A model generated the notes under the pieces. The model was given only the letters and a program-made list of their open reading frames with translations. It made no database searches and was not told where the DNA came from. A stretch of 40,685 nucleotides of DNA, taken from positions 1 through 40,685 of the forward strand of contig JAETRU010000031.1 in the NCBI GenBank assembly GCA_021769965.1. The letters run 5' to 3'. How positions within the stretch are numbered: position 1 is the stretch's first letter; each line of letters begins with the position of its first letter. A program made the translations under genes and the position numbers. This document shows, in pieces, positions 9,217-34,230 of the stretch. The stretch is from Eubacterium sp. (GTDB lineage: Bacteria; Bacillota; Clostridia; Peptostreptococcales; Anaerovoracaceae).

Positions 9217-9408
9217 CAGACGGCTTTGCAGCTGCCCGGCTGACCTGGTCTTTGCCCCCACACTCGCCTTGACCGGGATTTTCCCGAGGACTTACATCTA
9301 AGCTGCGCCATGATCACTGCCGCCCTGCGGATCAGCTTACGTGGATCCTTTTGCCCGCAACTGGCTTGGATTTTCAACCACAGACCCGGACAGCTGCAAA
9401 GCCGCCTG
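9217..9408 (-). ncRNA. Structured RNA upstream of hpf, probable raiA RNA
   Basis: A long inverted repeat closes this gene-free stretch. GGCTTTGCAGCTG (9222-9234) pairs with CAGCTGCAAAGCC (9391-9403), and the stem extends on both sides (CAG.CGGC with GCCG.CTG; CCGG with CCGG) to about 20 bp around some 145 bases. The minus-strand RNA also has smaller helices, such as GGGATTTTCCC-like and GATCCGC pairings. The raiA RNA class of Clostridia and Actinobacteria is about 200 nt, lies directly upstream of hpf/raiA on the same strand, and is thought to act as an RNA. Size, place and strand all fit. I identify it by position and shape, not by a covariance match. A possible -10 (TAGAAT) lies at the end of comF near 9414-9419. 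Confidence 0.68.
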
Positions 9409-23054: not shown

Positions 23055-23287
23055 GTTTTCTTTTTTCGAATTTTTGTTTTCCACAGAAAACGTTTTAGCG
23101 ATTTTAGAAAACAAAACCATGTCTGAAGCCAGAAATTCCGGCAATTAAGCTGAAACAAACAGGCAGACAGCGGCAATGTCCCCACATTTGCCGCTGTCTG
23201 CCTGCCGAAATCCTGATTCAGTTCTAAATCGTTGCTTATTTTTCAATTATGTTTTCCTGAGAAAACATTTTAGCGTTTTTTGAAAAC
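23055..23287. repeat. Three 37-bp inverted-repeat elements with GTTTTC/GAAAAC arms
   Basis: The elements lie at 23055-23091, 23076-23112 (overlapping the first, shifted by 21 bp) and 23251-23287. Each runs exactly 37 bp from GTTTTC to GAAAAC. The second and third are clear copies of each other: both continue with a short GTTTTC-N4-GAAAAC palindrome and then a TTTTAGCG core. They flank the terminator at 23160-23204 in the 410-bp stretch between the sigma operon and the LysO gene, which holds no other gene that I can see. Because the arms are AT-rich the match in length is weaker evidence than in the other two arrays. Confidence 0.65.
23160..23204 (-). terminator. Strong terminator after the LysO gene
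   Basis: A perfect 17-bp stem (AGGCAGACAGCGGCAA at 23161-23176 with its complement at 23188-23203, plus one outer pair) closes an 11-nt loop. TTTGTTTC follows on the minus strand. It ends the FHA-FtsW, PBP, LysO transcript. Confidence 0.85.
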
Positions 23288-23316
23288 ATCCGCCATCAAA
23301 CATCTTCCATTCAACA

Positions 23317-29772: not shown

Positions 29773-29882
29773 CATTGCCGAACCAATTGCCGAACTTTAT
29801 GGACCTGGTTCGGCATTTTTGCTGTTTTCTGCCTCATTGCCGAACCAATTGCCGAACCAATTGTCGAACTTTGCGGACCAAT
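29773..29882 (+). repeat. 12-bp tandem repeats (GCCGAACCAATT) with embedded terminator
   Basis: GCCGAACCAATT units occur at 29777, 29789 (partial), 29839 and 29851. Each block ends GCCGAAC or GTCGAACTTT...GGACC, so two larger copies lie 62 bp apart, the second with one extra unit. TGCCGAACC (29776-29784) and GGTTCGGCA (29807-29815) followed by TTTTT serve as the terminator of the antiporter gene. No gene lies here. Confidence 0.75.
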
Positions 29883-30839: not shown

Positions 30840-31751
30840 TCATCCCTCCTCATATTTTTCCGCCAGGGCCTGTCCGATCCCGGCAATCTGCCGCCGCAGG
30901 CCTTCCGGCTCCAGCAGTTCAGCCCGGTCCCCGAAGGTAAGCAGCCATGTGATCAGATGATCTTTATCTGCAAAACCGAAGGTGAACAAAAGGTTTCCGT
31001 CCGGCTCTTCCACAAAGCTGTCCCTGCCGAATTCCTCAATGATCCGCCACAGACAGTCCGGCGTAAACCGAATCTTCGCCTGCAGCCCGGCAGGGAATAT
31101 CTTTTCCGCCGACAGATCCGGCAGCGGGACCTCCCGCCTCTGAAAACGATCCTCATTTAGCACAAGCCCGCTGAGCCGGTTCAGCTTGAACATGCGGAAA
31201 TCTTTCCGTTCCCTGCACCAGCCCCAGACATACCAGTTCGCCCACTGGAAGATCAGATAATAGGGTTCGACGACCCTCCCGCTTTCGCCCTTTGGCGAGA
31301 TATAGTCAAAGGAGACGCTCTGCCTCCCTTCGATAGCGGCCCGCAGCATCTCTATCTTCGGAGCCAGGCTCTCCCTGTACCACGAAGACAGGTCGATGAG
31401 CAGATACTCTCCTGCAGCCATCACCTCTGAGGAGCCTGCGGCCAGTTTATCCATCAACTGGGCGTACCGGTTGGTACCGCTGACGCTGTCCAGACTTCGC
31501 AGACCTGACAGAATGGACTGCAGCTCTGAAGAGGTCAAAAGGGTTCTGTCGATGCGGTATCCTTCCATGATGGATATGCCCCCATCCCTGCCCTGTCTGG
31601 TCGCGACAGGGATCCCGGCTCTGCACAAAGCATCGATATCTCTGTTGATCGTTCTGCGGGATACCTCGAATCTCTCTGCCAGATACGGCGCAGTAACCTG
31701 TTCCTGCTGCAGCAGGATCGACAGAATACCGATGAGACGGTCTATCTTCAT
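30840..31751 (-). CDS. HTH and WYL domain transcription regulator (YafY-like)
   Basis: The protein of about 303 residues has an N-terminal helix-turn-helix (about 1-60, with APYLAERFEVSRRTINRDID) and a WYL domain (about 130-210, YLIFQWANWYVWGWCRERKD) followed by the WCX C-terminal part. WYL domains sense ligands such as nucleotides or nucleic acid ends. ATG 31751 (MKIDRLIG) follows AAAGGAG; the longer frame to 31805 has no such site. It heads the operon with tfoX-like and gyrI-like genes, and the usual reading is that it controls them. Confidence 0.9.
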   Translation of the reverse strand: MKIDRLIGILSILLQQEQVTAPYLAERFEVSRRTINRDIDALCRAGIPVATRQGRDGGISIMEGYRIDRTLLTSSELQSILSGLRSLDSVSGTNRYAQLMDKLAAGSSEVMAAGEYLLIDLSSWYRESLAPKIEMLRAAIEGRQSVSFDYISPKGESGRVVEPYYLIFQWANWYVWGWCRERKDFRMFKLNRLSGLVLNEDRFQRREVPLPDLSAEKIFPAGLQAKIRFTPDCLWRIIEEFGRDSFVEEPDGNLLFTFGFADKDHLITWLLTFGDRAELLEPEGLRRQIAGIGQALAEKYEEG

Positions 31752-31834
31752 AGGTTCTCCTTTCTCTTTAAAGCAACAGCTCCGCCAGTATACCATATAA
31801 AACACGACAGAAGCATGTCATGTTTGCTGCGGGC

Positions 31835-32080
31835 TTGGGCAGAATTGGTCGGACTTGGGCTAAATCCGCTATAAACGGTCAAAAAGCCCAACTTTCTGAC
31901 TGAGGACTTGGGCTAAACACGCTGAGATCCATCAAAAAGCCCAACTTATTGCCCGAAGTCTTGGGCTAAATATACCGTAATCTCTCAAAAAGCCCAAATT
32001 CAGGCCCTTAAACTGATGCGAAATCCCTCTAAAGCCTCGGAAATTGGGCTTTTTTCATCAAATATCACGATAAAGCCCAA
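31835..32080. repeat. Array of 37-bp inverted-repeat elements (TTGGGC/GCCCAA arms), part 1
   Basis: Clear elements lie at 31855-31891, 31908-31944, 31961-31997 and 32044-32080, each exactly 37 bp from TTGGGC to GCCCAA. The first three are in perfect 53-bp register (16-bp gaps) and share TTGGGCTAAA and AAAAAGCCCAA with different middles. A lone left arm at 31835 and a decayed element around 32003-32040 complete the array. The arms match those at 136-403 except for one pair (A:T to G:C). The array resumes at 33588 after the IS110 element. Bases 31752-31834 and 32081-32110 show nothing else. Confidence 0.85.
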
Positions 32081-32110
32081 GTCATAAAAGATAAAATTAG
32101 ACAATATGTA

Positions 32111-32206
32111 ATGACCTCCAATTTGTAAGTTCGCGGATTTACCTGTATACTATAGATTGGAAAAAAACAAAGGTAACAGGGATTACCGCATACAAATGGA
32201 GGTCAT
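32111..32206. other. Long inverted repeat around the transposase start
   Basis: ATGACCTCCAATTTGTA (32111-32127) is complementary to TACAAATGGAGGTCAT (32191-32206) with one bulged base. The interior also pairs in part (GCGGATTTACCTGT with ACAGGGATTACCGC). A transcript across it would hide the GGAGGT sequence. It marks the left side of the mobile element; whether it is its true end is not clear. Confidence 0.6.
32123..32151 (+). promoter_or_regulatory. Promoter of the IS110-family transposase
   Basis: TTGTAA (32123-32128), 17 bases, TATACT (32146-32151). Transcription would start near 32158, almost at the TTG codon that opens the reading frame. It lies within the left inverted repeat. Confidence 0.5.
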
Positions 32207-33179
32207 CAAATGCTACGGAGACGATGCCGTATTTATATGCGGTTATGAAGCTGGCTGCCTCGGCTTCACCCTATATCATCAGCTTACAAGCCATAACGTG
32301 AAATGTGTGATTCTTGCCCCGACTACAATGCCAAAACCAGTCGGCAAGAAAAAAGTGAAAACGGACAAACGTGACGCTGCACTGATCGCCCGGTGTCTTG
32401 CCCATCGTGATTACAGCCCGGTTCATATCCCTACGGAGCAGGATGAGCAGGTCAAAGAGTATATCCGAATGCGGCAGGATCACAAGCTCGCACTGAAAAA
32501 GGTAAAGCAGCAGATCCTCGCTTTCTGCCTGCGCCACAACTATCGGTATGATGCAGCCAAAAGCCATTGGACACAGGCACACCTGCAGTGGCTCCGGGCA
32601 TTAAAGCCGGAAGGTATCTATCAGGAAATCCTGACGGAATACCTCTCCACCTATGATCAACTGACGGATAAGCTGGAACGTTTGGATCACCGCATCGAAG
32701 AACTGGCAGCACAACCTGAATATCAGGAAAAGGTACAGCACATGTCCTGCTTCCTTGGTATTAAGACGCAGACCGCACTTTCTACTCTGGTAGAAGTCGG
32801 CGATTTTAAGCGCTTTGCCAGCGCCCGGCAGTTTGCTTCTTATCTAGGGCTGACCCCAGGGGAGGATTCCAGCGGAGGGGAGAAGAACAGACTTGGGATT
32901 ACCAAAGCGGGAAACAGCCATATACGAACCTTGCTGATAGAAGCGGCTCAGAGTTATACCCGCGGGCAAATCGGACATAAATCCAAAACATTAAAGTCAC
33001 GTCAATATGGCAATCCGGCTGATATCATCACCTATGCCGACAAAGCGAATGAACGGCTGAGGCGGAAGTATTACCGCATGGTGCTGAACCAGGGAAAGAA
33101 AGCCAATGTTGCTAAAACCGCAGTTGCCAGGGAGCTTGCCTGTTTCATCTGGGGAATGATGACAGGGAACACACAATAA
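32157..33179 (+). CDS. IS110-family DEDD transposase, N-terminally truncated
   Basis: The frame encodes up to 340 residues. GYEAG (Glu31) and TDKRDA (Asp70, Asp73) are the E, D and D of the RuvC-like DEDD centre, and the Transposase_20 domain follows (about 195-285: FLGIKTQTALSTLVEVGDF, YLGLTPGEDSSGG with the conserved Ser, KAGNSHIRTLLIEAA). Family members of about 390-400 residues begin about 45 residues earlier with a GID/SIDVHK-type segment carrying the first Asp. That part is absent here and no other frame upstream supplies it, so the enzyme is likely dead. The start could be TTG 32157 or ATG 32196. Confidence 0.85.
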   Translation: MEKNKGNRDYRIQMEVIKCYGDDAVFICGYEAGCLGFTLYHQLTSHNVKCVILAPTTMPKPVGKKKVKTDKRDAALIARCLAHRDYSPVHIPTEQDEQVKEYIRMRQDHKLALKKVKQQILAFCLRHNYRYDAAKSHWTQAHLQWLRALKPEGIYQEILTEYLSTYDQLTDKLERLDHRIEELAAQPEYQEKVQHMSCFLGIKTQTALSTLVEVGDFKRFASARQFASYLGLTPGEDSSGGEKNRLGITKAGNSHIRTLLIEAAQSYTRGQIGHKSKTLKSRQYGNPADIITYADKANERLRRKYYRMVLNQGKKANVAKTAVARELACFIWGMMTGNTQ

Positions 33180-33570
33180 CAGTATTAGGAATATCACATT
33201 GTCTTGGGAATATCAAGACCAAGCCGCCAAAGGGCGGTGCTGCGCAGTCCTGACATTCCCCTGCCACTGTGATTGTGCGCAATTAAGCGTTGTAAGCAGC
33301 ATTCTGCCATTTACAACACAGCAGTTATTAAACTGGAGAGTCTTTGAAAGGGCTTTAGTATCTTTCAAGGTTCGAGCTATCTACGAAAAGCCCATGTTGG
33401 CACGGGACTTCCTGTGATCCACGCAATTAGACGGTAGAGCTCACGGCGGACCATTGACCTGTAGGTAAGGAGAAATCCGAATCCACGTATATCAGAGTGG
33501 CCAATGCCGGGGACTGATATGTCTAAAGCTCTTTCACGGGCTCTCCAGCTAAAATTTAATACGCTTGTGG
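33180..33570 (+). ncRNA. Structured noncoding end of the IS110 element, candidate bridge RNA region
   Basis: No convincing gene lies here. Hairpins in order: GTCTTG/CAAGAC (33202-33220 region), CCGCC-AAAG-GGCGG, TTGAAAG/CTTTCAA (near 33346-33368), and a longer pairing of GAGCT..CTAC with GTAGAGCTC (33374-33442 region). IS110-type elements encode a bridge RNA in a noncoding end: upstream in the IS110 group and downstream in the IS1111 group. Place and size fit the latter. Loop targets cannot be assigned without an alignment of intact copies. Confidence 0.45.
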
Positions 33571-33587
33571 TAATTTTTTCGGAAAAA

Positions 33588-33624
33588 TTGGGTTTTTCTG
33601 CTTCAATTGATCTCAAAAACCCAA
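33588..33624. repeat. 37-bp inverted-repeat element beyond the IS insertion, part 2 of the TTGGG array
   Basis: TTGGGTTTTT (33588-33597) pairs perfectly with AAAAACCCAA (33615-33624). The span is again 37 bp, like the element at 32044-32080, which has the same TTGGGCTTT type arms. It places the IS110 insertion inside the array. The aroK leader follows. Confidence 0.75.
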
Positions 33625-33702: not shown

Positions 33703-34230
33703 ATGAAACAATACGATCAGAATATCGTGCTGACAGGATTCATGGGCACGGGAAAGACGACTGTTGCCAATGCCCTGAAACAGCATTTTCAAATGGAGAT
33801 CATGGATATGGATCAGATCATTGTAGATCGGGAAGGCATGCCTGTTTCAGAGATCTTTCGGGTTCATGGAGAGCCGTATTTCCGGGATGCAGAGACCAGT
33901 CTGCTCATTGAGCTGCAGCAAAAGAAGCATGTGGTCATCTCCTGCGGCGGAGGAACGCCTTTACGGGAAATCAACGTTAAGGAGATGAAGAAAAACGGCA
34001 AAGTGGTTTTGCTGACGGCAGAACCGGAAACGATCTTAGAAAGAGTGAAGGACAGCCATGACAGGCCTTTGCTGGAAAACAATAAAAATGTTTCGTACAT
34101 TACAGAGCTGCTCGCTCAGCGCCGTCCCAAGTATGAAGCCGCTGCGGACATCATCGTTCATACAGACAATAAAAGCGCATCACAGATCTGTGAAGAGATC
34201 ATGGCAAAAGTATATGAAGAAGAACAATAA
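33703..34230 (+). CDS. aroK: Shikimate kinase
   Basis: It phosphorylates shikimate with ATP in the path to chorismate and aromatic amino acids. The 175-residue protein has Walker A GFMGTGKT (12-19), the substrate residues DMDQ, YFRDAETS with the conserved Arg, the CGGGTP loop and the lid RPLL. The length is normal. AAAGGAG stands ahead of the ATG, and a TATAAA box near 33662 may be its -10. It is 15 bp upstream of aroE; the two form a short aromatic operon just right of the array. Confidence 0.95.
   Translation: MKQYDQNIVLTGFMGTGKTTVANALKQHFQMEIMDMDQIIVDREGMPVSEIFRVHGEPYFRDAETSLLIELQQKKHVVISCGGGTPLREINVKEMKKNGKVVLLTAEPETILERVKDSHDRPLLENNKNVSYITELLAQRRPKYEAAADIIVHTDNKSASQICEEIMAKVYEEEQ

What the first reader, a model, noticed from the sequence alone, without database searches (positions are those of the whole stretch)
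31835..33624. Second 37-bp array with compensatory arm change, split by an IS110 element
Four clean elements plus one beyond the IS element all span exactly 37 bp from TTGGG to CCCAA; three are in exact 53-bp register (5 turns). The arms differ from the array at 136 by one paired change (TTGAGC/GCTCAA to TTGGGC/GCCCAA), so pairing or dyad symmetry is kept while sequence shifts. Each locus is uniform within but different from the other, as if each array is read by its own partner or is kept uniform by copying. The observed gaps of 5, 16 and 26 bp across both arrays step by about 10.5.
Basis: partly seen in the sequence, partly recalled or inferred. Interest (0 to 1): 0.8.

Follow-up and report, generated by a model that had tools for sequence, protein, structure and literature searches.

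The report
Phased half-site arrays with species dialects
Between unrelated genes of this unnamed bacterium and some of its sister species lie arrays of short DNA sites with a fixed, helix-timed layout whose six-letter word differs from species to species, which looks like a DNA-binding system whose recognition code has been rewritten more than once.

Summary
The genome holds 34 TTGGGC and 69 TTGAGC elements of exactly 37 bp (controls 0); of 109 matches at spans 22-52, 103 are 37. Half-sites lie 31 bp apart within an element, and elements are spaced so that half-sites share one DNA face (best period 10.5 bp). An AT-rich dyad lies in register. Tracts inside the arms do not pair: a DNA site, not an RNA stem. 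Four of twelve congeners carry the layout above background with other words: TTGTGC, ATTGAC, CGCCAT. Of eight loci shared between species, three carry different words. The 13 G arrays keep one internal direction and are diverged copies of a composite. The IS is IS1111-like; four of its five visible ends lie where an in-phase TTGGGC half-site is due. Flanking genes share no theme. Best reading: phased operator lattices of an unidentified DNA-binding protein family, dispersed like BIMEs but without REP palindromes or an array-flanked RAYT.

The parts
31835..31840 (+). lone TTGGGC half-site starting 20 bp before the first arm
31855..31891 (.). 37-bp element 1 (TTGGGCTAAA..AAAAAGCCCAA, type 'at')
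31908..31944 (.). 37-bp element 2 (type 'at'), +53
31961..31997 (.). 37-bp element 3 (type 'at'), +53
32044..32080 (.). 37-bp element 4 (type 'tt'), +83
32097..33580 (+). IS1111-like IS110-family element: left end 32097, left subterminal repeat ATATGTAATGAC 32104-32115; right end truncated (no right repeat in the window); starts 22 bp after the start of the last arm, where the next in-phase half-site is due
   Evidence: IS1111 hallmarks from passages of PMC11187229
32157..33179 (+). IS110-family RNA-guided transposase, 340 aa
   Evidence: Pfam PF02371, PF01548; NCBIfam NF033542
33180..33580 (+). non-coding region downstream of the transposase gene (position typical of the IS1111 group)
   Evidence: no ORF of 80 aa or more on + here; PMC11187229 passages
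33588..33624 (.). 37-bp element 5, TTGGGT..ACCCAA
136..403 (.). TTGAGC array: elements 136, 199, (241 degenerate), 304, 367
30840..31805 (-). left neighbour, HTH_11-WYL-WCX regulator
33703..34230 (+). right neighbour, shikimate kinase

Best explanation
The arrays are phased lattices of operator sites for a family of sequence-specific, dimeric (or higher) DNA-binding proteins. One 37-bp element = two inverted 6-bp half-sites with centres 31 bp (3 turns) apart, each followed inward by a 3-4 bp A/T tract, with a third A/T tract at the dyad, so three tracts face one side (inferred bend or wrap). Adjacent elements sit an integral number of turns apart so that bound dimers line up on one face and can touch (inferred cooperativity). 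The half-site word is a dialect that changes between species while the layout stays; some genomes hold two dialects. Arrays spread between intergenic sites as composites and grow by tandem duplication; a locus can hold an array of one dialect in one species and of another in the next. Because neighbours share no function, the role is more likely architectural (chromosome folding, domain boundary, or a repeat maintained by its own binding protein) than a regulon. Shown: layout, phasing, dialects, copies of one composite, locus sharing, IS positions. Inferred: the protein, its oligomerisation, the mode of spread, the function.
For: Strict 31-bp half-site distance (37-bp span: A 48 of 50, G 34 of 38, T 53 of 67, D 64 of 108, M 47 of 51 F..R pairs at spans 16-70 in the fetched loci). 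Best helical periods 10.5, 10.45, 10.5, 10.3, 10.4, resultants 0.89, 0.85, 0.82, 0.74, 0.75. AT-rich dyad in all five dialects; 0 of 2000 shuffles reach it for A, G and T; similar AAA core, clear for A-G (0 of 3000 permutations), weak for T-M and absent for D-M. Half-sites vary mostly independently. Whole-genome dialect counts with controls 0-1. Array loci shared between species, 3 of 8 with different dialects. In six same-dialect comparisons (6 loci) arms are intact in both species 42 times and in one only 15; expected share 0.44 from control words of all 8 comparisons, P 7e-6. Arm mismatches 18 of 264, other array positions 178 of 975, flanks 339 of 2405 at 5 loci. IS ends at in-phase half-site positions, 4 of 5 visible, the fifth truncated.
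Against: No cognate protein was identified. D fits 10.3 bp better than 10.5 (resultant 0.59 with a 60-degree offset at 10.5) and has many 28- and 46-bp spans; M is 25 degrees off at 10.5. A-array polarity follows transcription in 5 of 5 tandem contexts, which a purely architectural role does not predict. G008 and G010 showed no array in 180 and 200 kb sampled, so the system is dispensable in the genus. The arm-conservation tests use alignments anchored by the arms and count arms by exact match, which flatters them.
Confidence: 0.58

Rival explanations
1. BIME-like selfish repeats: the protein that reads the half-sites is the enzyme that copies and inserts the arrays (a double-strand analogue of REP/RAYT), and phasing is needed for its synaptic complex; the host gets nothing.
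For: Between genes, many copies, alternating orientation, species-specific families; G arrays are copies of one composite; the array before pfkA here is absent from 10 of 10 readable sister loci; no functional theme. Y1 transposases are present in the array-rich G000, G004, G007, G011 (interrupted) and G012.
Against: None of the 9 Y1 loci holds an array; a Y1 gene also occurs in G001 without known arrays, and none was found in G005. Arms are kept between species beyond the rest of the array. Three loci hold arrays of different dialects, which needs insertion hot spots under this view.
Confidence: 0.25
2. Ordinary transcription-factor operators for a large regulon.
For: Dyad-symmetric phased half-sites resemble PurR (two 14-bp inverted PurBoxes 16-17 bp apart, DNA wrapping suggested; PMC8789054 passages).
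Against: Neighbours unrelated (polymerase III alpha, phosphofructokinase, SmpB, formate-THF ligase, PGAM, leu and cit genes). Of 82 arrays 46 lie between co-directional genes, 11 between convergent, 11 between divergent ones and 14 were open on one side; several separate genes of one pathway (citF-citC, leuA-leuC).
Confidence: 0.08
3. Structured RNA or terminator/attenuator hairpins.
For: 'tt' elements can form 10-bp stems; at position 6 of 24 of them 14 are C-G, 4 T-A, 4 T-G, 2 unpaired; A arrays are co-directional with genes in 5 of 5 tandem cases.
Against: Inner tracts do not pair, 'at' elements break pairing at positions 8-10 in 29 of 29, covariation term unfavourable, no Rfam match at gathering threshold, only four sub-threshold matches, G orientation independent of transcription (4 of 8, or 3 of 6 without two contexts assigned by hand), B-DNA phasing unexplained.
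Confidence: 0.06

Closest known systems
BIME / REP repeats with RAYT
   Same: between genes, about 100 or more copies, clusters of alternating orientation with regular spacing, species-specific families, IS1111-group elements such as ISPa11 insert into them (PMC2817692, PMC11187229 passages)
   Different: half-sites are not themselves palindromes with a GTAG-type foot; elements have variable centres; no array-flanked RAYT; strict 31-bp distance and 10.5-bp phasing; inner tracts not paired
PurR (Bacillus) PurBox pairs
   Same: inverted half-sites about 30-31 bp centre to centre, A/T-rich surroundings, wrapping suggested (PMC8789054 passages)
   Different: 15 ChIP sites, 12 with PurBoxes, in B. 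subtilis versus arrays at unrelated genes; word differs; presence of PurR in these genomes not tested
DNA uptake sequence dialects (recalled)
   Same: short genus-level word that differs between species
   Different: no fixed inverted geometry or helical phasing; far more copies (recalled, not tested)
IS1111-group insertion sequences
   Same: the inserted element has subterminal inverted repeats, a 7-bp left extension, a downstream non-coding region and repeat-targeted insertion
   Different: target is the TTGGGC half-site of these arrays; the window copy lacks its right repeat; the 3-bp right extension is assumed

Membership tests
REP/BIME with RAYT | between genes, high copy, alternating orientation | tested here: met
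   gene positions from my own ORF picking, not from an annotation
REP/BIME with RAYT | each REP is an imperfect palindrome (stem-loop), often with a GTAG foot | tested here: not met
   half-sites TTGGGC/TTGAGC are not palindromic and inner tracts do not pair
REP/BIME with RAYT | cognate RAYT (Y1 transposase) flanked by the repeats | tested here: not met
   one Y1_Tnp in the genome, 156-aa frame; no array in its locus nor in the 8 other Y1 loci of the genus
IS1111 group of IS110 family | DEDD/Transposase_20 transposase | tested here: met
IS1111 group of IS110 family | 11-13 bp subterminal inverted repeats | tested here: met
   12-bp repeat at the left end in window and C59 and at the right end in C45 and C24; missing at the window's right end
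IS1111 group of IS110 family | end extensions of 7 bp left and 3 bp right | tested here: inconclusive
   7 bp left fits the point where window and C59 flanks part; 3 bp right is assumed, since C45 and C24 share flanking target letters
PurR operators | CGAA-centred 14-bp boxes, 16-17 bp spacer, purine genes | tested here: not met
   words TTGAGC/TTGGGC lack CGAA; flanking genes scanned are not purine genes; PurR gene itself not searched
integron attC sites | RYYYAAC/GTTRRRY core sites (motif recalled) | tested here: not met
   TTGGGC and TTGAGC fit TTRRRY but TTGTGC, ATTGAC and CGCCAT do not; integrase not searched
Rfam RNA families | match to a curated model at its gathering score | tested here: not met

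The most novel reading that the evidence does not exclude
A bacterial chromatin-like system: a family of DNA-binding proteins with fixed quaternary geometry and rapidly rewritten half-site words builds one-faced lattices at tens of chromosomal sites, and lineages switch dialect while keeping sites in place, comparable to centromere or insulator turnover in eukaryotes.
Probability: 0.25. Interest if true: 0.92.

Novelty: new variant of a known kind. Interest (0 to 1): 0.74.

Why it matters
It gives a natural series of genomes in which one DNA-site architecture is constant and its recognition word varies, so the cognate protein could be found by which DNA-binding protein changes its specificity residues in step. 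It also shows orthologous loci that carry an array of one word in one species and of another in the next, a testable case of coordinated site turnover in bacteria, and a natural target for an IS1111-like RNA-guided element.

Tried and rejected
Rejected: RNA hairpins; REP/RAYT; phage origin (viral contigs: 13 and 83 stretches, each with one exact element; none of the 96 has two; 13 of 96 have 3-4 loosely clustered arms and were not followed); wide spread in the family (349 genomes, TTGNGC pattern: 25 with a hit, only G000 99, G004 18, G011 11 and G238 4 above 2; G238's four are on four contigs and were not followed; this pattern cannot see ATTGAC or CGCCAT). A regulator-neighbour rule was looked for only by eye. 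None of the five words is above background in G001, G002, G003, G006, G008, G009, G010; G005 is marginal (TTGTGC 3, ATTGAC 1). The window locus could not be compared with sister species: the shikimate kinase matches are 28-38 % identical. At pfkA, 10 of 11 sister loci were readable upstream, none with an array; in G001, G007 and G012 the upstream gene was not identified. One shared-flank pair (58 % identity, G011 T versus G012 M) was dropped as a likely paralogue; trkA, lysC and one ATTGAC locus rest on one flank only. The third G000 repeat (GTTCGGCA/TGCCGAAC) and the G011 TGCATA repeat do not have the 37-bp span and were left out of the counts. G005 may have a further dialect, TTATGC, two elements 220 bp apart. 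Literature: nine searches of the PMC library (two returned nothing, 54 listed 10 of 1,367) showed no report of such arrays; only listings were seen, and passages of PMC11187229, PMC8789054 and PMC2817692.

Full report
Observation. The five TTGGG..CCCAA elements at 31855, 31908, 31961, 32044 and 33588 and the TTGAGC array at 136-403 are present as described, each exact element 37 bp. Against the whole 2.99-Mb genome (the window is its contig 7) TTGGGC-N25-GCCCAA occurs 34 times and TTGAGCA-N23-TGCTCAA 69 times, the reversed control patterns never. Opening the gap to 10-40 bases gives 109 matches (control 8); the 25-base gap alone gives 103. So the spans are peaked at 37.

Geometry. In the fetched part of the genome, half-sites of both words lie at multiples of about 10.5 bp: mean resultant 0.91 at 10.5 (TTGAGC, 224 pairs) and 0.87 at 10.45 (TTGGGC, 294 pairs), phase near zero. 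Within an element the arm starts are 31 bp apart; between neighbouring elements mostly 32 (TTGAGC) or 22, 42, 52 bp (TTGGGC), with a 42-bp step at the degenerate element of the first window array. Half-sites therefore face one side of the helix. Behind the invariant arm comes an A/T tract (positions 7-10 and mirror), and the dyad (18-20) is A/T-rich as well, 97-100 % in TTGAGC elements, in the same register.

DNA or RNA. The tracts next to the arms are mostly AAA or TTT but do not complement each other: G elements pair at positions 8, 9, 10 in 12, 11, 10 of 34 where independence predicts about 17; A elements pair at position 10 in 1 of 24 (9.5 expected). In 55 loosely defined G elements 19 depart from C-G at position 6 and its partner, 5 on both sides, 14 on one. 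RNAalifold on ten of the 13 G arrays gives an unfavourable covariation term (+1.53), with a two-sided change in 4 of 31 pairs, and Rfam has no match at its gathering scores. The sites are best read as double-stranded DNA.

Dialects. The words of this genome are at background in relatives: TTGRGC-N25-GCYCAA occurs 0 or 1 times in each of 40. But some congeners have the same layout with another word. TTGTGC: G011 29, G004 34, G007 4, G005 3, G009 and G000 1; ATTGAC: G007 29, G004 22, G011 17, G005 1; CGCCAT: G012 155, others 0-2; controls 0-1 in the 13 genomes. In the fetched loci the 37-bp span holds for A 48 of 50, G 34 of 38, T 53 of 67, D 64 of 108 and M 47 of 51 F..R pairs; best periods 10.5, 10.45, 10.5, 10.3 and 10.4; the dyad is A/T-rich in all five. 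The centres share an AAA core most clearly between A and G; T-M is weak and D-M is not above permutation (186 and 1307 of 3000). The ATTGAC family fits 10.3 better than 10.5 and has extra half-sites about one turn away. In 180 kb of G008 and 200 kb of G010 no array with 31-bp arms was found, against 14 clusters in 356 kb of this genome, whose stretches were however chosen for their arrays.

Loci. Among 82 arrays in fetched stretches of five species, eight loci are shared between species by flanking proteins; in three the word differs: citF-citC (TTGAGC here, TTGTGC in G011, G004, G007), leuA-leuC (TTGTGC in G011, ATTGAC in G007), both with both flanks, and upstream of trkA (ATTGAC in G011, TTGTGC in G004; one flank) (names). 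In six same-dialect comparisons arms are intact in both species 42 times and in one only 15, where other words of that length predict a 0.44 share. Upstream of pfkA the array is a gain of this genome: 10 of 10 readable sister loci lack it.

Anatomy of arrays. All 13 G arrays examined are compatible with one order, 'at at at tt tt' or its reverse complement; one also has two 'aa' elements and two show only two elements; none mixes 'at' with 'ta'. They match each other as copies of one composite, with spacings typically 53, 53, 73-94, 53 and about 66-77 % identity over hits of 100 bp or more; ten of them align at 54 % mean column identity. A arrays have one polarity each, co-directional with the genes in 5 of 5 tandem contexts; G composites are co-directional in 4 of 8, or 3 of 6 if two contexts that I assigned by hand are left out. 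Neighbouring genes have no common theme; several had no family match.

The insertion sequence. Its transposase is IS110-family. The left end has a 7-bp extension and a 12-bp repeat, ATATGTAATGAC, whose complement stands at the right end in contigs C45 and C24, as in the IS1111 group. Five ends of this IS are visible in the assembly. Four lie where an in-phase TTGGGC half-site is due: 22 bp after the start of the last arm here, 63 bp in C59, and, if the right extension is 3 bp, inside the arm of an exactly 37-bp element in C45 and C24. The fifth, the window's right end, has lost its repeat and cannot be placed. ISPa11 targets REP in a similar way (PMC11187229, passages seen).

Reading. I infer a family of sequence-specific DNA-binding proteins that form one-faced lattices on these arrays, with words that drift or are exchanged between species. 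Whether the host gains from it (architecture) or the arrays persist as repeats driven by their own reader cannot be settled from sequence. The reader protein is not identified; that is the main gap.

Noticed in passing
window 29776-29857; L067 14657-14925; L058 7372-7560: A third repeat family with GTTCGGCA/TGCCGAAC arms, direct copies 12 bp apart and, in L067, 62-bp tandem units; span 38, not 37.
   Followed up: partly
window 23055-23115 and 23249-23295: Two copies of a GTTTTC..GAAAAC repeat flanking a long hairpin at 23160-23204.
   Followed up: no
window 9231-9394 (-): raiA RNA, well over its Rfam gathering score.
   Followed up: no
L360 3289 and 3509 (G005): Possible further dialect TTATGC-N25-GCATAA in G005, two elements 220 bp (21 turns) apart.
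   Followed up: partly
G012 contigs C2, C4, C12, C33, C38, C44: Several G012 contigs end in or within about 100 bp of CGCCAT arrays, so the assembly seems to break at them and 155 may be a lower bound.
   Followed up: no
L147 5440-5830 (G009): 91-bp tandem repeat with TGTTTC/GAAACA pairs, a different layout.
   Followed up: no
G011 L075 7254-7475, L077 12682-12890: TGCATA/TATGCA inverted pairs with a 34-36 bp span, perhaps a related family.
   Followed up: partly
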